Shown here one piece after another: positions 24,307-38,088 of a stretch of 38,088 bases of DNA. The stretch lies in the NCBI GenBank assembly GCA_003989075.1, contig RXIX01000020.1, positions 1-38,088 on the forward strand, given 5' to 3'. The position numbers and the translations under genes were made by a program. Below the pieces are notes generated by a model. That model worked only from the letters and a program-made list of their open reading frames with translations, made no database searches and was not told where the DNA came from. Position 1 is the first letter of the stretch; every line of letters begins with the position of its first letter. The DNA comes from Candidatus Competibacteraceae bacterium. Lineage in GTDB: Bacteria; Pseudomonadota; Gammaproteobacteria; Competibacterales; Competibacteraceae.

Positions 24307-25368
24307 GTGCTGTTGAGAGACTACTATCGCCGCGTCGTGGAAGGTCTGAGCATCGCTGTCGTGGTGCTCGACCGGCGCTTGCGGCTGACTTTCATGAACC
24401 CGGCAGCGGAAACCCTGTTCGAGCTGAGCTTTCGCAAGGCGCACAAGCTGGCGCTGACCGAGCTGGTGATCGGTGCCGAGGGCTTCATCGCTGGCCTGCG
24501 CCACTGCCTGGAAAACGGTCACCCCTATATCGAACGCGAGCTGCAGTTGACTTTCACGCCGGAACGCATCGTTACCGTCGATTGCACGGCGGCGCCCCTG
24601 CTGGAACGTGACCCGCCGCAGGAACTGCTGCTGGAAATCCGCCAGGTGGACTGGCGGCTGCGCATCAACCGCGAGGAACATATCCTGGCCCAGCACCACA
24701 CCACCCGGGCACTGGTGCGCAACCTGGCCCACGAGATCAAGAATCCGCTCGGCGGACTGCGCGGCGCCGCGCAGTTGCTGGAACGGGAACTGCCGCACCC
24801 GGCGCTGCGCGAATATACCGGGATCATCATTGGCGAGGCCGACCGCCTGCGCAATCTGGTCGATCGCATGCTCGGCCCCAACCAGTTGCCCAATCAGGGC
24901 GACGTCAGCATTCACGAGGTTCTCGAACGGGTCTGCAGCTTGATCGAGGCCGAGGCGCCGACTGGCATCCGCATCGAACGCGACTATGACCCGAGCATTC
25001 CGACGCTCTGGGGTGATGCCGACCGGCTGATCCAGGCCGTGCTCAACGTGGTCGGCAACGCGGTGCAGGCCCTGGAGGGGTGCGGTTTGATCACCCTGCG
25101 TACCCGGGTCCAGCGTCAGTACACCATCGGGCCCAAGCGCTACAAGCTGGTAGCGCGGCTGGATGTGGTCGACAACGGTCCGGGCATTCCCGCCGAACTG
25201 CAGGCGTACATCTTCTACCCGATGATCAGCAGTCGCCCAGGCGGAACCGGCCTGGGTCTGTCGATCGCCCAGAGCATCGTCAACCAGCATGGCGGCCTGA
25301 TCGAGTGCGCCAGCCGGCCTGGCGAGACTGTATTCACACTGCTGCTGCCCTTGGGTAAAAACGGATGA
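24307..25368 (+). CDS. glnL: Nitrogen sensor histidine kinase NtrB
   Basis: 353-residue cytoplasmic sensor kinase (NRII) that phosphorylates NtrC under nitrogen limitation and dephosphorylates it when bound by PII. A PAS domain (about 5-115) precedes the phospho-acceptor H142 in VRNLAHEIKNPLGGLRGAAQLLE. ATPase motifs follow: N-box VLNVVGNAVQAL, G1 DVVDNGPGIP, F-box YIFYPMISSR, G2 GGTGLGLSIAQSIV. GTG 24307 is chosen because GGGAGG lies about 10 nt upstream and the length then matches the family; the frame runs upstream to 24133, but that part covers the NtrC operator region. The stop overlaps the ntrC start as ATGA. Confidence 0.94.
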   Translation: MLLRDYYRRVVEGLSIAVVVLDRRLRLTFMNPAAETLFELSFRKAHKLALTELVIGAEGFIAGLRHCLENGHPYIERELQLTFTPERIVTVDCTAAPLLERDPPQELLLEIRQVDWRLRINREEHILAQHHTTRALVRNLAHEIKNPLGGLRGAAQLLERELPHPALREYTGIIIGEADRLRNLVDRMLGPNQLPNQGDVSIHEVLERVCSLIEAEAPTGIRIERDYDPSIPTLWGDADRLIQAVLNVVGNAVQALEGCGLITLRTRVQRQYTIGPKRYKLVARLDVVDNGPGIPAELQAYIFYPMISSRPGGTGLGLSIAQSIVNQHGGLIECASRPGETVFTLLLPLGKNG

Positions 25369-26759
25369 CCAGAAAAGAACATGTTTGGGTGATTGACGAC
25401 GACCATGCCATCCGCTGGGTACTGGAAAAAGCCCTGCAGCGCGACAACATGATCGTCTCGACCTTCGAAAGCGCCGCCGGGGTTCTTGATGCCCTCGGGC
25501 GCGGGCGGCCAGACGCGATCATGGCCGATATCCGGATGCCGGGGATGAACGGCCTGGAACTGCTGTCGCGACTGCGCGAGCAGGCCCCGGAACTGCCGGT
25601 GATCATCATGACCGCTCATTCCGATCTGGACAGTGCGGTATCCGCCTATCAGGGCGGCGCCTTTGAATACCTGCCCAAACCCTTTGATGTCGATGAGGCG
25701 GTGGCCCTGGTGCGCCGCGCCTGTCTGGCGCACCGCCCGCAGTTCGAACCGCAGGAACCGGTGCAGCGCCTGCCTGAGATCATCGGCGAAGCCCCGGCGA
25801 TGCAGGAGGTATTCCGCGCCATTGGCCGGCTGTCGCGCTCCAACATCACCGTGCTGATCACCGGCGAATCCGGATCCGGCAAGGAACTGGTCGCCCGCGC
25901 CCTGCACCGCCACAGTCCGCGCGCCGACAAGCCGTTTATCGCCATCAACACCGCCGCCATTCCCCGCGATCTGCTCGAATCGGAACTGTTCGGCCACGAG
26001 CGCGGCGCCTTCACCGGTGCCCAGGCTACCCGTCAGGGGCGCTTCGAGCAGGCTAACGGTGGCACCCTGTTCCTCGACGAGATCGGTGACATGCCCGCTG
26101 AACTGCAAACCCGGCTGTTGCGGGTGCTGGCCGAGGGCGAGTTCTATCGAGTCGGCGGCCACACCCCAACCCGGGTCGATGTGCGGGTGATTGCAGCCAC
26201 CCATCAGAACCTGGAACAGCGGGTGCGCGATGGCCTGTTCCGCGAGGACCTTTACCATCGCCTGAACGTGATCCGCATCCAATTGCCGGCCCTGAACCGG
26301 CGCCGCGAGGATATCCCGCTGCTTACCCGGCATTTCCTGGCCCAGGCGGCGCGCGAGCTGGGCGTCGAACCCAAGCAGCTGCGCCCGGAAACCGAAAGCC
26401 ACCTGAGCCGTATGGACTGGCCGGGCAATGTCCGCCAGTTGGAAAATCTGTGCCGCTGGCTGACGGTGATGGCTTCGGGGCGGGAGATCCATCTCGAAGA
26501 CCTGCCCACCGAGTTGCGCGAGCGTGCCCCGGTGACCGCGAATGGGCCGGACTGGGAAGCGGCACTGCGTCTGTGGGCCAGCCAGAGCCTGGCGCGCGGT
26601 GAGCAGGATCTGCTCGATACCGCGCTGCCCAGTTTTGAACGGGTGCTGATCCGCGTCGCCCTGGAACAGACCGGCGGCCATCGCCAGGATGCGGCGCGGC
26701 TGCTCGGCTGGGGGCGCAACACCCTGACCCGCAAGATCAAGGAACTGCATATGGAGTAG
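25365..26759 (+). CDS. glnG: Nitrogen regulator NtrC (sigma-54 activator)
   Basis: 464-residue response regulator. The receiver (about 1-120) has phospho-acceptor D55 in [10 protein letters not shown] and Lys in YLPKPF. The AAA+ domain (about 140-380) has Walker A GESGSGKE, the sigma-54 contact loop GAFTGA, Walker [13 protein letters not shown] and the R-finger region [13 protein letters not shown]-terminal Fis-type helix-turn-helix ([25 protein letters not shown]) binds enhancers such as the one at 24124-24140. It is translationally coupled to ntrB by ATGA. It activates glnA from sigma-54 promoters. Confidence 0.96.
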
Positions 26760-28434: not shown

Positions 28435-31400
28435 TTATTCGTCGGCCCTGATCAGGTTCGAACCGACTGCATGGCCACCACCGGGCGCCTCCAGATCGCC
28501 AAAGTCCGAGGGGCGCAGATTCTCCGCGCCGTTGAGCATGTCCGCAGACAGGCTGCGCTTCCATTCGAGCAGGGCGTCGAGCTTCTGATCAAACGTGATG
28601 AAGTCTCCGGCGACTACGACCGGGTAATAGACGAACACATCCCGGGTCTGGCCGATTCTGTATGCGCGGTCGGTCGCCTGGTCCTCCCTGGCGGGATTCC
28701 ATGTGCGCGTGAAATGAATCACATGGTTGGCCGCCTGAATGTTGACCCCGAAGCCAACAGCCAGCGGCGAAAGAATAATCACCCCGAAGCCCTGCGCCTC
28801 CTGGAACGTCCTGATGCGCTTCTGGCGATTGTTCGAGTTGTCTGCGGCCGCCGCAGTGTCGCCGTTGATCACCTCAGGAAGAAAACCCAGCCGTTCGTGG
28901 ATCGCCCGCTGCAGCGTCCGCTGCAGGTCGCGGAACTCGCAGAAGACTATGGCCTTTTCCCCGCTCGTCCGGATGGACTGGAGTTTATCGAGCAGCCACG
29001 CCATTTTCGGCGAGTGCCGGACAATTTCCGACACCGGTTCAGGACTGCCCGGGACACTGCCGGGCGGGCGCGGATCCGAGCAGAGGCGGCGCAGGTATTG
29101 AAGCAATTCAAGATGGCTTTGGAGGCCCGATGGTACTCCGTAACCGGAGCCCTTGCGGAACAGACCCACGGCGTCGGCGTAGTACGCCCGCTGCCGATCT
29201 GACAGGGGCAGGCTCCGGCATTCGGGAACTTCGATCTTTCTTGGCAGATCCCCGGCTACCTCCGCCTTGACCCTGCGAAGCTTTTGCGGCTCTATGAGTT
29301 CGCGCAGTTCAAGGACCCTGGCTTTTTCCTCTTCGGTTTGCGCCTCAATCGGCCTGCGGTAGCGCGCGCCAAAATTCTTGAGGGTGCCGAGCAATCCCGG
29401 CTGGACGAAATCGAACAGACACCAGAGGTCTGTGAGCGTGTTCTCAACCGGCGTTCCCGTGCAGGCGATCCTGAAGCGGGCGTTTTGCTTTTTCGCAGCG
29501 CGTGTTATCAACGCATTCGGATTTTTGATCTTCTGCGCCTCATCGCAAACCATCATCGACCAGCGCTGCAAGGCCAGCGAAAATTCGAGATCGCGCAGTG
29601 TTTCATAGGTCGTCAACACGAGCTTCGCGTTTCCGAGCCAGTCGCGGCGCAGCAATCCTGTTATGCCCGCTCCCGCGAGCCCCTCGTCGAGCGCGCTCCT
29701 TGGCAGGCGCTGTTGCGCAAGCTCGGAACCGTAGAGCGTCAGGACCGGCACCGCGCAGGGTTCAAGGAATTTTCCGATTTCCTCCTTCCAGTTCTCCAGC
29801 AGGGAGACCGGCGCCACGACGAGAAATGGGTCGATGTGCGGATTCCCTTCGATGGCAGCAGCCATGAACGCAAGCAATTGGATCGTCTTGCCAAGCCCCA
29901 TGTCGTCTGCAAGCAGAGCGCCCCTGCAGTCACCGGGAGATTTGCTCCACAGGTGCTGGAGCCACGCGACACCGGTTTTTTGATGGTCCTTGAGCTGGAT
30001 TCCGCGTTTGAGGCTCGACGGAAGGGTGGGGGCTAGCCCCTCTGGCATGGCCAGCCGGCCCCGACGCTCCTCGTAGTCGAGCGTGTCGATGTTTGGCTTT
30101 ACCACCAAACCCTTACGTTCGATCGGCGCGCGTCCACCGACTCCGGACTCGTGGGGATCGAAGGTTCCCGACGATACAGTGGCGTTTGCCGATCCGAGCG
30201 CTTCAAGAGCCGCTTGTGCCCAAGCGACCTTGATTGGTTTAGGGCAACCGGGAAACGGGAACGATTCGCGGTTTTCCGCCCTAGCCCTGGCCACCTCTTT
30301 ACGAAACGCCCCGAGCGTCTTATCGGACAGCGAGACCGCAACCGTTTCCCCGCCGCCCTCAGGCGTGTAGTACAAGCCAAACTCGACGTTCTCCGGGAAC
30401 CAGCCGGAGTGCTGGCTTTTCTTGGCGATGAACGGGGCGTAGTAGGTCTTCTCGACCCCGAAACCCTCGACCCGTTCCGAGTATCGGGTGATGTCGAATA
30501 GCTCCGACGCCTTGAGGCTGGCCGATCCACGCAGCTCATCGAGGGCCGCCCGCAGCAGGGTCGCCTGGTCGAGCGTGTCCCCGAGTATTTCCAGATCCAC
30601 ACCTTCCCAGTGGCAGCACTGGGCGCCCATTGCGATCCTTGCATCAAGCTTGGCGAGGAACGCCTTCAACCCGGCAGCGCCTTCGAATATCCTCTCCTCG
30701 GCGCTCACGCAGCCGGCGCAGGTGTCCTCGACCAGAATTCCCGTCTCAAATGGCCGCCCCATGTCGTCGCGTCTCACGATCGCTGTGAAATGGGCGAAAG
30801 AGATACCAGCCTCGTCTCTGGCCTGTTCGAACTGCTGCGGATCGATCACTCTGTCGGCATCGGGGCCCAGGGTGGCGAACGGATTACGCACGAAGGCTTC
30901 GGCACGCTCGCCCGCAACCCTTCGACCGGGCATTCTTTTGATTTCCCGCAGGACCGTTCGCGCTTCCGGAGAGATGATGACGTGAGCAAGTCCCTCACCG
31001 TCAGGAATCTCGTAGTGTTCCCCGACTGATCCCAGCCGGTCGAAAATTTCCAGCCAGCGCAGCGGTTCGCCATCGAATCCCGGAATGATCTCGATCGCTC
31101 CGCCCGCGCCCTTGCGCATCCGGATACGAATTTTCTCCGGTGTCAGGACGATAGTTTTTTTGAGGAAGTCCGAAAGTTCGGAACCAGCCGCAATCGCCCG
31201 CGTTCTGATCGCGGCCCAGGCCCTGCGATTGGAATCTGCATTCCTCGTTTCCCTGGGCCGTACATGGAATTGAGCGATGGCCCGCAGGGTTTCCCACGTC
31301 TCCAGCGGCAGCAGAGCCTCTGATGATCCTGTTCGAAGCACTGCGCCCTCTATGACAGGATCCGAGCGCAGCGGACGATCATCGGGATCGATCCATCCGG

Positions 31401-31743
31401 CAATCGCCACCGAGAATTCCCTGTCTGTCAGCGAGCCCCGGCTGGACAACGCCAGGCGCCAGCGTTGCACCGGGGGCAGCCCAAGAATCGGCAGGCATTC
31501 AGCATAGACCGGTGACGACATGAGGCGGTAAAGGTTAGCCCACTCGATCCAGGCACTGTCTCCATCGCGCTCGGCGAATCCCTCGTCCTCAAGCTGTGCA
31601 ACCAGAGCCGCGAACTCCGTCAGTGAGCCAGCCAGCGCTCCAGGAAACACAACGCCCTCAGTCGTGAATCTGGTGGTGGGTCGCTCTGACACGATGGTCT
31701 TGTCAACCTTCCGCTTGCCCGAACCAAAGAAGGACCATCCCAT
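28435..31743 (-). CDS. zorD: ZorD, SNF2-family helicase/nuclease of type I Zorya
   Basis: 1102-residue protein. The C-terminal half (about 590-1070) is a Swi2/Snf2 ATPase with DDMGLGKTIQLLAF (Walker A, about 613-622), VCDEAQKIKNPN (motif II), CTGTPVEN (III), VIILSPLAVGFGVNIQAANHVIHFTRTWNPAREDQATDRAYRIGQ (V-VI, split here only by description). The N-terminal half (about 1-580) is a long family-specific region without a domain I can name. In Zorya defence ZorD acts on invading phage DNA after the ZorAB motor senses infection. ATG 31743 follows AAGGA inside the preceding small frame. The order zorA-B-C-D and the size identify type I Zorya. GC is lower than in hemF and upstream genes. Confidence 0.9.
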   Translation of the reverse strand: MGWSFFGSGKRKVDKTIVSERPTTRFTTEGVVFPGALAGSLTEFAALVAQLEDEGFAERDGDSAWIEWANLYRLMSSPVYAECLPILGLPPVQRWRLALSSRGSLTDREFSVAIAGWIDPDDRPLRSDPVIEGAVLRTGSSEALLPLETWETLRAIAQFHVRPRETRNADSNRRAWAAIRTRAIAAGSELSDFLKKTIVLTPEKIRIRMRKGAGGAIEIIPGFDGEPLRWLEIFDRLGSVGEHYEIPDGEGLAHVIISPEARTVLREIKRMPGRRVAGERAEAFVRNPFATLGPDADRVIDPQQFEQARDEAGISFAHFTAIVRRDDMGRPFETGILVEDTCAGCVSAEERIFEGAAGLKAFLAKLDARIAMGAQCCHWEGVDLEILGDTLDQATLLRAALDELRGSASLKASELFDITRYSERVEGFGVEKTYYAPFIAKKSQHSGWFPENVEFGLYYTPEGGGETVAVSLSDKTLGAFRKEVARARAENRESFPFPGCPKPIKVAWAQAALEALGSANATVSSGTFDPHESGVGGRAPIERKGLVVKPNIDTLDYEERRGRLAMPEGLAPTLPSSLKRGIQLKDHQKTGVAWLQHLWSKSPGDCRGALLADDMGLGKTIQLLAFMAAAIEGNPHIDPFLVVAPVSLLENWKEEIGKFLEPCAVPVLTLYGSELAQQRLPRSALDEGLAGAGITGLLRRDWLGNAKLVLTTYETLRDLEFSLALQRWSMMVCDEAQKIKNPNALITRAAKKQNARFRIACTGTPVENTLTDLWCLFDFVQPGLLGTLKNFGARYRRPIEAQTEEEKARVLELRELIEPQKLRRVKAEVAGDLPRKIEVPECRSLPLSDRQRAYYADAVGLFRKGSGYGVPSGLQSHLELLQYLRRLCSDPRPPGSVPGSPEPVSEIVRHSPKMAWLLDKLQSIRTSGEKAIVFCEFRDLQRTLQRAIHERLGFLPEVINGDTAAAADNSNNRQKRIRTFQEAQGFGVIILSPLAVGFGVNIQAANHVIHFTRTWNPAREDQATDRAYRIGQTRDVFVYYPVVVAGDFITFDQKLDALLEWKRSLSADMLNGAENLRPSDFGDLEAPGGGHAVGSNLIRADE

Positions 31744-31746
31744 CGC

Positions 31747-31986
31747 TTATTCCTTCCGCCAACCCCTGCGGGCCTTATATTTGAAACCCCATTGGCGCAG
31801 CCTGTATGCAACTACTTCGATGTGGTCATGAGTCCGAACCCACAATGCCCCGCCCTTTGATCGCATGTCCTCAATCGAAAATCCCCTATCGGCAGCGCAC
31901 TGCACGAGAACCACCATGCTGACTGCCGGAGATAGATCATCTGCTCCAACCCGATCAGCGATGATGGGATTAGCTACAGAGTGCAC
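31747..31986 (-). CDS. 79-codon frame between zorC and zorD, unknown
   Basis: A frame from GTG 31986 (or ATG 31917, 56 residues) to a stop 3 nt before zorD. The better-looking part is the C-terminal 56 residues, with SIEDMRSKGGALWVRTHD, then VAYRLRQWGFKYKARRGWRKE. The RSKGGALWV stretch followed by a helix and an aromatic/basic RGW end recalls a small domain that I have seen attached to helicases and restriction-like proteins; this is memory, not a search. It is in the same frame as zorC, nine codons after the zorC TAA, so it may be an ancestral C-terminal domain of zorC or a separate gene. No good ribosome-binding site precedes either start. It is not part of the described zorABCD set. Confidence 0.5.
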   Translation of the reverse strand: MHSVANPIIADRVGADDLSPAVSMVVLVQCAADRGFSIEDMRSKGGALWVRTHDHIEVVAYRLRQWGFKYKARRGWRKE

Positions 31987-32010
31987 CCTGGATTGGCAAG
32001 ATTGGGATGA

Positions 32011-33501
32011 TTAGTCGCGTTTGCGGGCCGGTTCCTCGGGGCGACGGCCGATAAGCGAGCTAATGGTGTTATCGAAGTTCTGCTCCCAGGTCGGCACCGT
32101 GTTCTTGGTGTGAATCAATCGACAGATGTGGTTGTGGTGCTTCAGTCCGTGGATCGAAACGTCAGAGCGTTCATTGCCCGATAGAAGATTCTGTAAAAGC
32201 GTCGCAGGGATAGAGTCCCATCGGACCAGGTAGAATGCATTGCCTTTAGCTCCGAACTCGATGGCCAGATATTCGCCAATCCGCATGATGAATGCATTGT
32301 TATTGGCTGTCGTGTGCGTAAGGTTCAGCAGACGGCCTCGCGCCCTGTGCTGGAAGTCTTTGAACGCCTCACTCCTGCAATTCTGTGCCTCCGATCCGAG
32401 CGCGAACCACATGTCCTCGATGAAGGACTCGAAGCGCAGCCAGTAATCGAGTCTGCGCGGATCGCTGCGCCCTTCCACACTCAACAATTCGAAGAAATCA
32501 CCGATCAGACGACGCTTGAGCCATCCGTTGATCATTTCGCGGGCTCTGTCGTCAGGTCGTCCCATGGAATCAACAACGTCGGAATCCCACGCCACCCGGC
32601 ACAACCACGGGTTGCCGATGATTGAGACCGCCGCATCACGTAGAGCCATATGTTCGGTGGTGACCGCGCAACGCGAGTAGCGCGACACCAGCAGCGCCAT
32701 GCACCTGGTTTGGAGTTTTTGGGGAATAAACATATCCGTTTTGCCCGTGACAATCGGCAACAGTTTGTCGAGCATTGCCTTGAAATTGTCATCGCGCAGC
32801 CTGGATGCCGTGCGCATCTGCGAATAGATCGCCTCTTGCAGAATCCACGAATCCGTCGGGATCGCAAGCGTTTCGAGAGCAGAGCGGAAGGATGCCGTAT
32901 CGCCCTGCAGCAGTGCTGGACCGTATTTCCCGCAGGGATCAGCGCCGAGAAGATTCGAGTGCTCTGCCAATGGGGCCATCCAATCCGGCTTGCGTTCAGT
33001 CATCTTGTCCAGCGAGCGGCGCTTGCACTCAAGCCATGTGCCCAAGGCCCTAAAACCCCTGATGGCAACCGCATTGGTCGATTCATCGTACAGGGGAAAT
33101 GTCCAGTAGCTCCGCAGCAGCGCTTGGAAGCATTTAATTTGTCTTCGAGTGTCGCCCGCCGCGTCTGCTGCCGCGAATAATTTTTCCCGTAGCCCCTCTT
33201 CCGCAATCAGGCTACATCCGCGCTCATCCGGATTGCTAGCCCCGAGGCAAGCGTATTTGAGATTGCGGAAACCTACCGCAGTACCGGAACGGCGGAACGC
33301 TGCAACGGCAGCGGAGATTGCACCCGGGTCGGATGGCAGGGCCGAAATATCGAACGCGGCCCGAACCTGGCTGATCATGCGCCTGATAGCGGCATCGTCG
33401 GTCCAAGTACCCTGACCGCTCTTCGGGATCGGGATAAAAGTTGTCCGCAGTAAAGAGCGCAGTTGTTCAAGCGGGTCGATTATCTGCTGGTGATTGGGCA
33501 C
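32011..33501 (-). CDS. zorC: ZorC, EH-signature protein of type I Zorya
   Basis: 496-residue soluble protein. The C-terminal part carries the EH signature: Glu415 in AIEFGAKGNAFYLVRW and, 43 residues on, the His cluster in HGLKHHNHICRLIH (His458). In the Zorya model ZorC works with ZorD as a cytoplasmic effector that binds DNA. GTG 33501 is chosen because GAGGA lies 7 nt upstream; it overlaps the end of zorB by 22 nt, so translation is coupled. No other known domain is visible, and without the neighbours the protein would be hard to name. Confidence 0.87.
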   Translation of the reverse strand: MPNHQQIIDPLEQLRSLLRTTFIPIPKSGQGTWTDDAAIRRMISQVRAAFDISALPSDPGAISAAVAAFRRSGTAVGFRNLKYACLGASNPDERGCSLIAEEGLREKLFAAADAAGDTRRQIKCFQALLRSYWTFPLYDESTNAVAIRGFRALGTWLECKRRSLDKMTERKPDWMAPLAEHSNLLGADPCGKYGPALLQGDTASFRSALETLAIPTDSWILQEAIYSQMRTASRLRDDNFKAMLDKLLPIVTGKTDMFIPQKLQTRCMALLVSRYSRCAVTTEHMALRDAAVSIIGNPWLCRVAWDSDVVDSMGRPDDRAREMINGWLKRRLIGDFFELLSVEGRSDPRRLDYWLRFESFIEDMWFALGSEAQNCRSEAFKDFQHRARGRLLNLTHTTANNNAFIMRIGEYLAIEFGAKGNAFYLVRWDSIPATLLQNLLSGNERSDVSIHGLKHHNHICRLIHTKNTVPTWEQNFDNTISSLIGRRPEEPARKRD

Positions 33502-34214
33502 TTGGAATCCTCATCCCAGGGAATATTGGGCGGTGGCATGTCGCATTTTCCTTGACCGCTAGGACAAAGATCCTTGAACTCGAGCCGGAGTTCGACACGC
33601 CGGCTCTCCTCGGGACTCTTCTTGGTCGAGTTGAACGACGATCCACCGACAAGGAAAAGTGTACGGATCATTTTTCGGTCGTTGACGCTGGGAGCATCGG
33701 CGGCATTTGCGTCGAGAAGCACGCACAGTATTCGCTGAGAACGCTCCAGGCTAAGGTTCAGGTTGTAGAGGTAGGAACCCTCCTGGCTGGCGAAGCCCTC
33801 AACTACGACTCGCTTTAGCCACTTCTGGCAGCTTTCGTAGCGGACAACTTCGAGGATCTGTGGAATAAGTCTGCGCAGGAACGCCTTGCGTTCGAGTGTG
33901 AGGTCATTGCCATTTTTGTCGAACTCGGCAAGGGAGCCAAACTCGATCGCATGTCCACGCACCTGCACACCCTTGAACTCGGATCTCTGGGTGATGCTGT
34001 CGATGTCGGTGATGCACGACTGGATCGTTGCTTCCCGGTCCTTCTTCTCCTGTTCGATATCGCGCAATCCCTGTGTGACCGCCATTAGGGCAACAGCCAT
34101 GGCTACGAGGAACAGGACCATCAGTGCTGTCATCAGGTCGGAGAATGATATCCAGAACGGCTTTTCGGCCTCGTCCCGGGCGGGTCTGCGCTGTGGTGTC
34201 TTGATGCCGAACAC
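33480..34214 (-). CDS. zorB: ZorB, MotB-like stator subunit of type I Zorya
   Basis: 244-residue inner-membrane protein. One N-terminal transmembrane helix (about 20-46) holds the ion-carrying Asp26 in FWISFSDLMTALMVLFLV, the position expected for MotB/ZorB proton or sodium relay. A coiled linker and an OmpA-like peptidoglycan-binding domain follow (VVVEGFASQEGSYLYNLNLSLERSQRI near 137-163 and the late RRVELRLEF). With ZorA it forms the ion-driven motor that detects phage-induced envelope damage. The start is GTG 34214, preceded by AGAGG in the last codons of zorA. All key residues look intact. Confidence 0.92.
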   Translation of the reverse strand: MFGIKTPQRRPARDEAEKPFWISFSDLMTALMVLFLVAMAVALMAVTQGLRDIEQEKKDREATIQSCITDIDSITQRSEFKGVQVRGHAIEFGSLAEFDKNGNDLTLERKAFLRRLIPQILEVVRYESCQKWLKRVVVEGFASQEGSYLYNLNLSLERSQRILCVLLDANAADAPSVNDRKMIRTLFLVGGSSFNSTKKSPEESRRVELRLEFKDLCPSGQGKCDMPPPNIPWDEDSKCPITSR

Positions 34215-34220
34215 GGGGCT

Positions 34221-36191
34221 TTACCTCTGCTTCTGCAATGACAGGTCATCCAGGGTGTCCCCAAGATCCTTGATTGCTCCAGAAAGCAGACCTACCGCGC
34301 CGCCGAGCTCCTTATGGAACTGGCGATTGCTCTCGCGCAGGGTGCGAATGACGTTTTCGGCGAACGCTTCGTGAGCGTTGCCCAGGACTTCGCTGATGTC
34401 CTTGAGGTATGCCTCGGCCTGCTTTTCTGCAACGGCGAGTTGCATGGCCGCCCCGTTGAGGGTTGTGACGATCTCGGAGGTCATTGATGCCTCCTTGCGG
34501 GCGTTCTCCACGATCGATTTCATTTCTGCGACTAGCATGGCGAACGAATCGCGCATTCTCGCGTAATCGGCGAGGATGTCGCAGGTCGCTTGGGTAGCCG
34601 ATGAAAGCGTGCCGGAGGATTCATGGATCAATTCCACGGCGGCCGAAGACGAACGCATCGTCTCGGAAACGCCCGATCCTGCCTTGGCGAAGTCGGAGGC
34701 TGCGACACGCAGCATCTCGGCCCCTTGATTAAGTCCACTGATCGCCTCTGTCGTGGCTGATGACAGACGCGCGATGGTGTCTTGCAGGAACCGGTTCGTT
34801 TCGATCGACTGGGCAAGCAAGGATTCAGTCTGCTCGGAAAGCGACCCGATCGCCTTGCTTGTACTTTCCTCAAAATTCTGCTGGCGACGGCCTAGAGAGT
34901 CAGTCGCTTCCTCGGCCTGCCGGCGCAGCTCGCCGACGACAGCGGCAACCTGTTCTCCTATTGTCGAGAGAATCTCCTGCATTTTCCTGCCAGTTTCCGA
35001 TTGTGATTCGGCTGTCATCGCGCACAGTTGATCGACGAATTCACTCATCTGCTGGTTCATGATCTGCTGGCGAGCCTCCATCGAGGTGATGGAGTGATTG
35101 AGACGGTCGGTCATTGCATCGACGGCATTCTTTCCTGCCAAATCGATGCCCTCGGCAAGCCGTGCAAACTGGGAGGCAGCATCTCGCAAGGCATCGCTGG
35201 TCTGGTGCAAAAGGTCGCTCATGCCGTGCATCTGGCTACCAAACATATCGTGCATCTGGGCCGAGAAGCTCGACAGGACATCCGTGAGCATTTTATTGAC
35301 GGCATCGCCCTGACTGGTACTGACACCCTTGACTGCTTCGGCTATTGCAGCAATCGGCTTGCCAAGATGATCACCAATAGCCTTGCCGACATCGATGGAA
35401 ATTTGCCCGGTAGCGCGGGTATTCTCTTCGGCCTGCCGCGCCATCATCTCTGAAAGGATTTCGCGCAGGTCTGCTACGAGAGCATCTTTGATCTGCGCGG
35501 CCTGAGTTGCCTGAGTTTCGGAGGCAATCACGAGGCGCTCAAGGTATTCCTCTCCGGCTCCCGCGTCGAACAGGCTGTCGATCAGTTGGCAAAGTTTCTC
35601 AACCTGCCGATACCGTGCGCTTACAAGGCGCTTCTCAATCCATGTAAAGATCATCGCCAAAGCAATTGCAGTAGCAGAGACGATGAATGCAGTGCTGACA
35701 GCCATGAAGAGAGTGCTCAACCCTTTTTGTACCTGTTCGGGGTTGATCGAGACATGGAATTCTTGCAGACCCATGATCAAGCCTGAGAACGTTCCGATGA
35801 TGCCAAGGCCGGTGAGAATTCCCGGAATGTGTTTATAGAACTCCGTTCTAAGCGGAGAGTCGACCAGGGCGCGCTCGGAGAAGAAGGTTTCGGCCAGTGT
35901 GCTGGCCCGCCAGCGTTTGATACGCATAACCCCGCTGCCATCTTCGGACCGTTGCGGGTGCAGGGTTGCGGTGTACTCACTCCAAAGGTGCTTCATCGGC
36001 GGCTGGGACATCGCCTCTCTGGTGATTTCATCGGGATCGACCGCTGTGCCGGCAGCCTTGTCCTTGATCCTGGACATGATATCGATGCTTTTCTTAAGGG
36101 TTGTGCCCAAGCGCCAGGCCGAAAATAAGAATTCAATCTCAACAGGACTTTCGCTTGGTGTTTTATCTGATTGATTTTCTGGTATAATCAA
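34221..36191 (-). CDS. zorA: ZorA, MotA/ExbB-like subunit with long tail; 5' end replaced by IS sequence
   Basis: The frame is open for 656 residues from a TTG at 36191, but its first 16 codons (36191-36144) lie inside the insertion sequence, whose edge is at 36143. Host-derived sequence starts at EIEFLFSAWRLGTTLKKSI. Two membrane helices form the MotA/ExbB core (about 122-144, ILTGLGIIGTFSGLIMGL, and 157-187, STLFMAVSTAFIVSATAIAL). A very long, mostly helical cytoplasmic tail of over 450 residues follows, rich in A, S, Q and E and typical of ZorA. No ribosome-binding site precedes the TTG; the first host Met is M39. Whether a further N-terminal helix was lost cannot be decided. Promoter and true start have been separated from the gene, so expression is doubtful. 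Confidence 0.88.
   Translation of the reverse strand: MIIPENQSDKTPSESPVEIEFLFSAWRLGTTLKKSIDIMSRIKDKAAGTAVDPDEITREAMSQPPMKHLWSEYTATLHPQRSEDGSGVMRIKRWRASTLAETFFSERALVDSPLRTEFYKHIPGILTGLGIIGTFSGLIMGLQEFHVSINPEQVQKGLSTLFMAVSTAFIVSATAIALAMIFTWIEKRLVSARYRQVEKLCQLIDSLFDAGAGEEYLERLVIASETQATQAAQIKDALVADLREILSEMMARQAEENTRATGQISIDVGKAIGDHLGKPIAAIAEAVKGVSTSQGDAVNKMLTDVLSSFSAQMHDMFGSQMHGMSDLLHQTSDALRDAASQFARLAEGIDLAGKNAVDAMTDRLNHSITSMEARQQIMNQQMSEFVDQLCAMTAESQSETGRKMQEILSTIGEQVAAVVGELRRQAEEATDSLGRRQQNFEESTSKAIGSLSEQTESLLAQSIETNRFLQDTIARLSSATTEAISGLNQGAEMLRVAASDFAKAGSGVSETMRSSSAAVELIHESSGTLSSATQATCDILADYARMRDSFAMLVAEMKSIVENARKEASMTSEIVTTLNGAAMQLAVAEKQAEAYLKDISEVLGNAHEAFAENVIRTLRESNRQFHKELGGAVGLLSGAIKDLGDTLDDLSLQKQR
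36180..36188 (+). promoter_or_regulatory. Extended -10 promoter of the transposase
   Basis: TGGTATAAT is a perfect extended -10 element ending 6 nt before the transposase ATG. No good -35 exists. The transcript would be almost leaderless, a common way for elements to limit transposase synthesis. Confidence 0.5.
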
Positions 36192-36194
36192 AGC

Positions 36195-37196
36195 ATGGTG
36201 ACGAAACAGTTATATGTTCAGTATTTGATAAGCACGCTGAGTAATTATACGTGCACGAATTTGGCTGCGCATCTGGAAGGTACAAGCCATGACGCGATTA
36301 ATGATTATCTGCGGCGTGAGAGACATACGGCCCGTCATCTATGGGAATTAGCCGAATCTTTAATAGATAACCAAGCGGAAGCTTACTTAATTGTGGATGA
36401 CAGCGTACTTGATAAACGTCATGCACAGGCGATGGAATTGGTGAAACGTCAATATAGCGGGAATGTTCACGGTCTCGTGCGAGGCATTGGTGTTGTCAAT
36501 TTAGTTCATAGTTATCAAGAGGATTATTACCCCATCGATTTTCGAGTCTATGCTCCAGAAATTGACGGTAAAACGAAAAACCAACATTTTCAAGAGATGA
36601 TTCGGCACGCGTATTATGAGAAATCGATTAAAGCGAGCACGATTTTGTTTGACGGCTGGTATGCATCTGTTGAAAATCTCAAGTTTATACATCGACTTGG
36701 AAAGATTTTTGTAACGACTCTGAAAGAAAATCGCTGGGTGAGTTTAAGTCCAGAGCAAGGCTATATTCATCTTCAGCAAATAGAATGGACGGAAGAACAA
36801 CTCCGGTACGGAATAACGATCAAGTTGAAAGAGGTTCCTTTTAAGGTGCAGCTTTTCAAGGTAGTCGCCACGAACGGCGACATTGGTTGGGTGATAACGA
36901 ATCGCGCCCCACGTTCTATAGATACGTCGGTGGTTCAAAATGAGAACCAGAGGCGTTGGGTCATAGAGCAGTTGCATCGGGAATTGAAACAACTGACGGG
37001 TATTGAAAAATGCCAATGCCGCAAACAACGAGCGCAACGCAATCATTTATTTTGTTGCTATCAGGCATGGTTTTCATTGAAAGTCGTGGCTAAAAAGCTA
37101 AGAAAAACACTCTACCAAGTCAAACAAAACCTGTGGAGTGAGTATTTGCGTAGCGAGTTACGCCAACCACATATCCGAGTTTACCAGACTGCTTGA
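36195..37196 (+). CDS. DDE transposase, IS701-like
   Basis: 333-residue transposase filling the element. Probable catalytic acids: Asp68/Asp69 in LIVDDSVLDK, Asp153 in LFDGWYAS, and Glu258 or Glu263 in WVIEQLHRELKQLTGIEKCQCRKQRAQRNH, the C-terminal signature of this transposase group. The N-terminal YLRRERHT and the RQYSGNVHGLVRGIGVV stretch also match IS701-type proteins as I remember them. ATG 36195 is used (MVTKQLYVQYL); the upstream open frame is inside the promoter. The reading frame is intact with no stops, so the element may still be mobile. Confidence 0.9.
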   Translation: MVTKQLYVQYLISTLSNYTCTNLAAHLEGTSHDAINDYLRRERHTARHLWELAESLIDNQAEAYLIVDDSVLDKRHAQAMELVKRQYSGNVHGLVRGIGVVNLVHSYQEDYYPIDFRVYAPEIDGKTKNQHFQEMIRHAYYEKSIKASTILFDGWYASVENLKFIHRLGKIFVTTLKENRWVSLSPEQGYIHLQQIEWTEEQLRYGITIKLKEVPFKVQLFKVVATNGDIGWVITNRAPRSIDTSVVQNENQRRWVIEQLHRELKQLTGIEKCQCRKQRAQRNHLFCCYQAWFSLKVVAKKLRKTLYQVKQNLWSEYLRSELRQPHIRVYQTA

Positions 37197-37222
37197 ACGA
37201 GAAATTCCAAGCGAAAGTCCTG

Positions 37223-37246
37223 AAATAAAAATAAATAAAATTTCAT
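37223..37246 (-). pseudogene. Possible detached first eight codons of zorA
   Basis: On the minus strand ATG 37246 is followed by seven sense codons (AAA TTT TAT TTA TTT TTA TTT) that end exactly at the IS edge, with an in-frame TAA just before the ATG. Deleting the IS plus 2 nt joins these codons in frame to GAG ATT GAA TTC of zorA. The sequence is simple and AT-rich, so chance is possible (one in three for frame), and no clear ribosome-binding site is present. Confidence 0.4.
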
Positions 37247-37337
37247 TTATTTATATCCATAAAACATAAAAATAGGCCTCTGCAACATAAAAAGCCTGAT
37301 TCATGGCATCATGATAGTTCTTCGGAGGCTCCCTCCC

Positions 37338-38088
37338 ATGCTTGCACAGCTCGATTTCATCTTCTTCGTTTATGGTCTGTCCTTTCTGCTGCTGGCAGCC
37401 GTCCTGTGGCAACTGCCGCAGCGCGCCTGCGAGGACATTGTCTGTCTGCCGTGGGGCTGGCTGGCACTGTTTGGGCTGCTGCATGGCGCGAATGAATGGC
37501 TGGACATGCTGGCGCTGAGCCTGGGTGATACGCCTCTGTTTCGCCTGCTGCGACTGGGGCTGATGGTGCTCTCGTTCCTGCCGCTGCTGGAATTTGGCCG
37601 GCGCGGCTGGCGACAGCTCGGTGGCTGGGCACCGGGAGCCTGGTGGATATATCCGCTGCTGCTTGGTCTGGCTGGACTGGGCGTGCTCGCCGACGGTGCA
37701 GCCGGTCTGAACGCGGCCTGCCGTTATGTCCTGGGCCTGAGCGGTGCTCTGCTGAGCGCGGCGGTGCTGCTGCGTGCAGCGCGGCGTAAGCAGGCGGCCA
37801 GCACGCGACTGCCACTGTTCCTGATCGGCAGCGCCCTGCTGATCTATGCACTGGTCGCCGGGCTGATCGTGCCGCAGGCCGCATTCGCGCCGGCCAGCCT
37901 GATCAACCAGGAAGCGTTTCTGGCCTTGACCGGCCTACCGATCCAGATCATCCGCGCCCTGTGCGCAGCCACCACCGCCCTGGGCGGCTGGCTGCTGTTC
38001 AACCGCGACCCACAGCAGGCCAATAGTTGGCTGCGCCGCAGCCTGTTGCCTGGATCACTGCTCCTGCTGCTGGCCAGTGGCGGTGGAC
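37338..38088 (+). CDS. Multi-spanning membrane protein, N-terminal part (cut by window edge)
   Basis: 250 codons from ATG 37338, preceded by CGGAGG (37323-37328), running off the right edge. It consists almost entirely of hydrophobic helices, at least seven, separated by short Arg-rich loops, with GWLALFGLLHGANEWLDMLAL near residue 45. This architecture is typical of the sensory membrane region of a histidine kinase or diguanylate cyclase, but no such domain is in view. GC-rich codon use returns to the chromosomal norm, so the accessory region ends before this gene, in the AT-rich stretch 37223-37330. Confidence 0.7.
   Translation, partial: MLAQLDFIFFVYGLSFLLLAAVLWQLPQRACEDIVCLPWGWLALFGLLHGANEWLDMLALSLGDTPLFRLLRLGLMVLSFLPLLEFGRRGWRQLGGWAPGAWWIYPLLLGLAGLGVLADGAAGLNAACRYVLGLSGALLSAAVLLRAARRKQAASTRLPLFLIGSALLIYALVAGLIVPQAAFAPASLINQEAFLALTGLPIQIIRALCAATTALGGWLLFNRDPQQANSWLRRSLLPGSLLLLLASGGG

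What the first reader, a model, noticed from the sequence alone, without database searches (positions are those of the whole stretch)
36143..37246. IS element splits the zorA start from the gene, possibly reversibly
The IS right at the zorA 5' end supplies the first 16 codons of the present frame (TTG start, no ribosome-binding site). Beyond the IS an ATG plus seven codons ends exactly at the IS edge. Removing the IS and 2 nt (a possible AA/TT duplication) restores one continuous frame into zorA. Hypothesis A: simple insertion after codon 8, precise excision would reactivate defence. Hypothesis B: insertion plus deletion removed a longer N-terminus, perhaps including a membrane helix, because no target duplication over 2 bp is seen. 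Either way ZorA expression should be cut or altered, as if selection against the defence system had acted.
Basis: partly seen in the sequence, partly recalled or inferred. Interest (0 to 1): 0.75.

Follow-up and report, generated by a model that had tools for sequence, protein, structure and literature searches.

The report
IS-truncated, decaying Zorya defence operon
A jumping gene and the DNA loss that came with it have cut the start, including a membrane helix, off the first gene of an anti-phage Zorya operon; a second gene carries a premature stop, so the system looks broken rather than switchable, an ordinary if well-documented case of decay.

Summary
A 1,080-bp IS701-type element (36143-37222) abuts zorA of a type I Zorya operon and supplies the first 16 codons of its present frame.

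Hypothesis A (simple insertion after codon 8, precise excision restores the gene) is refuted on three counts:
- Sister MITEs in the same genome and two related ISs make 5-bp target duplications. This IS has CTCAA on one side and AAATA on the other, so the "AA" is not the duplication.
- Close ZorA homologues (48-63% identity) have some 25-29 further residues, mostly an N-terminal membrane helix, that the eight codons MKFYLFLF do not resemble.
- The DNA beyond the IS occurs IS-free at the end of another contig (C173), next to an unrelated gene and not zorA. The eight codons are intergenic DNA of a histidine-kinase locus.

Hypothesis B (longer N-terminus lost in an IS-associated rearrangement) is supported.

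I found a second lesion: zorC has an in-frame TAA that removes its last 87 residues, with a conserved end. ZorB and ZorD look intact. The operon is most likely a non-functional remnant. The junction comes from a fragmented assembly that branches at this site, so long reads are needed.

The parts
36143..37222 (+). IS701-type insertion sequence, 1,080 bp; the only full-length copy in the genome bin
   Evidence: Terminal inverted repeats; single full-length hit in the own genome; NF049921 IS701 transposase
36195..37196 (+). IS701-family DDE transposase, 333 aa from ATG 36195
   Evidence: nearest plasmid relative 52.9% identical
36143..36163 (+). left terminal inverted repeat, the zorA side; outside it is CTCAA (36138-36142)
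37202..37222 (+). right terminal inverted repeat; outside it is AAATA (37223-37227)
34221..36142 (-). 5'-truncated zorA (native part): lacks about 25-29 N-terminal residues including TM1; TM2, TM3 and the cytoplasmic tail are kept
   Evidence: PADLOC ZorA1 759.5 bits with query 19 aligned to profile 31; alignments with homologues; hydropathy
36143..36191 (-). IS-derived 16 codons (LIIPENQSDKTPSESP) that head the present frame: polar, no ribosome-binding site
33480..34214 (-). zorB, 244 aa, apparently intact
   Evidence: PADLOC ZorB1, NCBIfam ZorB1; homologues align over nearly the whole length
31747..33501 (-). zorC pseudogene: in-frame TAA at 32011-32013 cuts off the last 87 residues, which stay in frame and recognisable downstream
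28435..31743 (-). zorD, 1,102 aa SNF2 helicase, apparently intact (GLGKT near residue 616, DEAQ at 734)
37223..37310 (.). AT-rich (24% GC) intergenic DNA in front of the histidine-kinase gene, containing the 'ATG plus seven codons' (37223-37246, minus strand); its first 77 nt are also the end of IS-free contig C173
37311..38088 (+). 5' part of a hybrid histidine kinase gene, continued on contig C193

Best explanation
This is a type I Zorya operon (zorABCD) that has lost its 5' end in an IS-associated rearrangement. An IS701-type element sits between what is left of zorA and the intergenic region of an unrelated histidine-kinase locus. Each IS flank carries half of a different target site (CTCAA in zorA, AAATA in the intergenic region). 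The simplest routes are recombination between two IS copies, one in each place, or an IS-adjacent deletion. Either removes the zorA promoter, ribosome-binding site and first 25-29 codons, and with them TM1. Any ZorA still made would start late, lack TM1 and be poorly translated. zorC carries an independent nonsense lesion. The operon is therefore most likely dead or dying and cannot be restored by excision of the IS. Shown here: the truncation, the missing membrane helix, the mismatched target halves, the IS-free flank and the zorC stop. Inferred: the rearrangement route and the loss of defence.
For: (1) Target duplications: of 12 sister elements (11 MITE-type and the 295-bp C90 derivative) whose two ends could be read, 8 have exact 5-bp duplications, one has 4 of 5 and one has GCTTTA on both sides; the other two show none. 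Two related ISs also show 5-bp duplications (ACCTC, and TTCAA in ISPlag1). The zorA copy has CTCAA against AAATA. (2) Close homologues start 25-29 residues earlier, with a hydrophobic helix and usually a YWH motif, for example MNEIISNYWHVGIVGMLLVAISIGFFARFVFPARRL (63% identity) and MSDEIVNFVRAYWHISIIGGFLVALSISFIAEFVFPAWRL (59%), against native EIEFLFSAWRL. The peak 19-residue hydropathy of the N-terminus is 1.6-2.9 in five homologues, 0.51 in the present protein and 1.13 with the eight codons joined. (3) The right flank is the last 77 nt of contig C173, preceded there by ...GGATTCTAT and a CxxCxxCC-protein gene, with no zorA and no IS. (4) An N-terminus profile that finds zorA starts in five other genomes finds none in this one. 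(5) zorC stops at TAA 32011-32013, while most of the 61 homologue alignments that reach that point run on (median 85 residues), and 49 loci match the residues beyond the stop. (6) Removing any single component of a Serratia type I Zorya abolishes defence (PMC11890865). [quoted passage not shown]).
Against: No reads are available. The bin has 278 contigs and the assembly graph appears to branch at this spot, so IS|37223 could be a strain variant or a rare misjoin. No reciprocal junction or second full IS copy was found, so the route is open. No expression data exist, and a late start could still yield some ZorA. Gene order in relatives does not independently show that C173 next to the kinase is the ancestral order.
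Confidence: 0.8

Rival explanations
1. Hypothesis A: simple IS insertion after codon 8 of zorA with a 2-bp duplication; precise excision would restore the gene.
For: Joining the flanks with 2 nt left out gives one continuous frame with an ATG.
Against: The family makes 5-bp duplications. Close homologues have a longer N-terminus with a full membrane helix. The eight codons exist IS-free next to a different gene and read MKFYLFLFIESS-stop there. A chance start in that frame has a probability of 0.46.
Confidence: 0.02
2. Assembly artefact: two loci each carry a copy of this IS (one inside an otherwise intact zorA, one upstream of the kinase) and the assembler joined zorA-IS to IS-kinase.
For: The genome is fragmented, and contigs converge on the window at exactly 37223 (C173) and again at 37363 (C102), as shown by 77-nt terminal overlaps.
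Against: No other contig carries the IS ends, the zorA edge or a zorA N-terminus, and C173 runs unbroken through the IS-free site. All of these could be unbinned. The zorC stop does not depend on the join, nor does the rejection of the eight codons as the zorA start.
Confidence: 0.13
3. The truncated ZorA is still made, from a late start or an IS-borne promoter, and the operon keeps some activity with a two-helix ZorA.
For: TM2, TM3, conserved channel residues and the tail are intact; zorB and zorD are full length.
Against: No outward promoter match within the zorA-proximal 380 bp of the IS and no Shine-Dalgarno; a hydrophobic N-terminal segment is seen in the homologues listed; ZorC is truncated too.
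Confidence: 0.05

Closest known systems
Type I Zorya (ZorABCD) anti-phage system
   Same: Gene order zorA-zorB-zorC-zorD and strong matches to all four families; ZorA channel core and long cytoplasmic tail present
   Different: zorA lacks promoter, start and TM1; zorC lacks its last 87 residues
IS701 family insertion sequences (for example ISPlag1)
   Same: DDE transposase of NF049921, CAGGACTT-type termini, 5-bp target duplications in relatives and MITEs
   Different: This copy has no matching duplication; its two flanks come from different target sites
TSD-less IS copies at rearrangement junctions (PMC11708052)
   Same: IS at a junction of unrelated sequences without target duplication, next to lost DNA
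   Different: Here the junction cuts a phage-defence operon; the event is inferred from one genome, not observed

Membership tests
Type I Zorya | zorA, zorB, zorC, zorD in one operon | tested here: met
   PADLOC E-values 7e-229, 2e-88, 2e-153 and 0 in order on the minus strand
Type I Zorya | ZorA with N-terminal TM1 plus TM2 and TM3 | tested here: not met
   TM1 and 25-29 residues missing compared with homologues; so the locus is filed as a remnant of a type I Zorya, not as a complete system
Type I Zorya | full-length ZorC with conserved C-terminal module | tested here: not met
   TAA at 32011-32013 before the conserved end
Type I Zorya | phage protection | not testable with these tools
   needs plaque assays
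IS701-family IS | IS701-type transposase above the curated cut-off | tested here: met
   NF049921 363.9 bits against 250
IS701-family IS | matching terminal inverted repeats | tested here: met
   21 nt, 90% complementary
IS701-family IS | target-site duplication at this copy (a mark of simple insertion, not of family membership) | tested here: not met
   CTCAA against AAATA; 5-bp duplications in sister MITEs and relatives. Points to rearrangement of this copy; transposase and ends still place it in the family.
Reversible IS switch | precise excision restores the interrupted gene | tested here: not met
   sequence on the far side of the IS is not zorA

The most novel reading that the evidence does not exclude
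The population carries several coexisting haplotypes around the kinase gene (C173, zorA-IS and C102/IS1-like all run into the same sequence), so IS-driven rearrangement may be actively gaining and losing Zorya-bearing arrangements, and the window would capture one such state.
Probability: 0.1. Interest if true: 0.45.

Novelty: new member of a known kind. Interest (0 to 1): 0.2.

Why it matters
Operons like this are scored as 'Zorya present' by family searches (PADLOC gives E-values down to zero), although two of four genes are broken. The case shows which simple checks (homologue N-termini, in-frame stops, target duplications) separate a probably working defence system from a remnant. It also shows that a frame restored by leaving out an IS is weak evidence: about half of shuffled flanks of this composition would give one.

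Tried and rejected
Genome-collection scan with ZorA alone gave no loci; the alignment-based scan gave 80. The only genome held for the genus is the window's own, so no IS-free zorA of a sister strain could be examined. A search for the missing N-terminus in the own genome was empty; the positive control found it in five genomes outside the profile but was weak or missed it in two divergent family relatives. Synteny of the C173 gene with the kinase in relatives was not found, so the ancestral order is not independently confirmed. Outward promoter scan: nothing above chance. In the literature searches no title or abstract reported an IS-disrupted zorA; the papers were not read in full for this. 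No structure prediction was run, because the missing helix is clear from sequence and hydropathy. A two-base target duplication was considered and rejected because the family makes five.

Full report
OBSERVATION. The IS is 36143-37222, 1,080 bp, with terminal inverted repeats of 21 nt (90% complementary) and one transposase of the IS701 type (NF049921, 363.9 bits, cut-off 250). It abuts zorA. The present frame 34221-36191 starts at a TTG inside the IS, with no Shine-Dalgarno match there or at the next in-frame starts. The eight codons at 37246-37223 are as described. An open in-frame start in such AT-rich DNA is expected by chance: 46% per frame and 88% for any frame in shuffles.

WHAT THE OPERON IS. 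Minus-strand genes 34221-36142 (zorA), 33480-34214 (zorB), 31747-33501 (zorC, interrupted) and 28435-31743 (zorD) match type I Zorya families with PADLOC E-values of 7e-229, 2e-88, 2e-153 and 0. The nearest solved ZorA is PDB 8QYD. The genes are 55-61% GC in a 64% GC surrounding, which suggests acquisition.

TARGET DUPLICATION. The own genome holds many short elements with the same ends: about 159-bp MITEs and a 295-bp internally deleted copy on C90. In the 12 elements whose two flanks could be read, 8 have exact 5-bp duplications, one has 4 of 5 and one has GCTTTA on both sides; C126 and C90 have none. Two related ISs on plasmids have 5-bp duplications as well. The zorA copy has CTCAA and AAATA, matching at one of five positions. 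The 2-nt AA is therefore not its duplication, and the two flanks most likely belong to different target sites.

HOMOLOGUE N-TERMINI. Eighty ZorA loci from named genomes were fetched. The best (63-48% identity) start well before the point where the native window sequence begins, with a hydrophobic helix that usually follows a YWH motif. Counting to the residue aligned with native E18, L067 has 25 residues before it, L054 28 and L047 29. None resembles MKFYLFLF. The 19-residue hydropathy peak is 2.33, 2.26, 2.53, 1.63 and 2.89 in five homologues, 0.51 in the present protein and 1.13 with the eight codons joined. TM1 is missing; TM2 and TM3 are kept.

IS-FREE FLANK. Window 37223-37299 is identical to the last 77 nt of contig C173, where it follows ...CTCTAATCAGGAGGATTCTAT and the start of a divergent CxxCxxCC-protein gene. 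There the eight codons continue as MKFYLFLFIESS-stop. Two other 77-nt terminal overlaps (C102 at 37363-37439, C193 at 38012-38088) have the same length, as expected of a k=77 assembly graph; the assembler itself is not known, so this is an inference. C102 reaches the kinase gene through an IS1-family element. The sequence to the right of the IS is therefore part of a histidine-kinase locus that also exists without zorA. The point of divergence is exactly the IS edge, as expected for a true transposition target.

WHERE THE N-TERMINUS WENT. No other contig shares the zorA edge or the IS ends at full overlap length. A profile of 14 ZorA N-termini finds the zorA start in five genomes that were not used to build it (E = 9e-16 to 0.003), is weak (E = 0.13) on one divergent family relative, misses another (G015), and finds nothing in this genome. 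Loss is favoured over relocation, within the limits of a binned assembly.

SECOND LESION. zorC stops at TAA 32011-32013 after 496 codons. Most of the 61 homologue alignments that reach that point continue, with a median of 85 residues. The 87 codons after the stop are still in frame and match the ends of ZorC at 49 loci (best E = 3e-12), including ...KGGALWVR...WGFKYK...GWRKE. ZorB and ZorD look intact, with GLGKT and DEAQ motifs in ZorD.

MECHANISM. [quoted passage not shown] Removal of any one gene of a Serratia type I Zorya abolished protection (PMC11890865). Loss of the start and TM1 of ZorA plus truncation of ZorC makes loss of function very likely; this was not tested.

VERDICT. Hypothesis A is refuted, B is supported, and reversibility is not. 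The case is an ordinary decayed defence operon with a clear anatomy and two lesions. The main uncertainty is the fragmented assembly around the junction.

Noticed in passing
window 31747-32013 (-): zorC has an in-frame TAA; the conserved 87-residue end is still readable behind it.
   Followed up: yes
L018-L032 (own-genome contigs C90, C23, C144, C126, C113, C101, C56, C44, C31, C2, C68, C7, C43, C32, C8): A family of about 159-bp MITEs shares the 44-bp left end and the terminal repeats of the window IS, mostly with 5-bp duplications; C90 holds a 295-bp internally deleted IS.
   Followed up: partly
L127 (C173), L128 (C102), L129 (C193) against window 37223-38088: Three contig ends overlap the window by exactly 77 nt, which suggests that the assembly branches around the histidine-kinase gene; C102 arrives through an IS1-family element.
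   Followed up: partly
L029 (C7, about 44362-44491): A MITE left end is cut after 40 nt by an IS1-like element.
   Followed up: no
window 37274-37297 (-): A terminator-like stem-loop lies just outside the IS and reads towards zorA; it might block leftward read-through, or be chance.
   Followed up: no
window 25365-26759 (+): PADLOC matches to RtcR/CARF models here are explained by a sigma-54 response regulator of NtrC type, next to a histidine kinase and near a glutamine synthetase gene.
   Followed up: no
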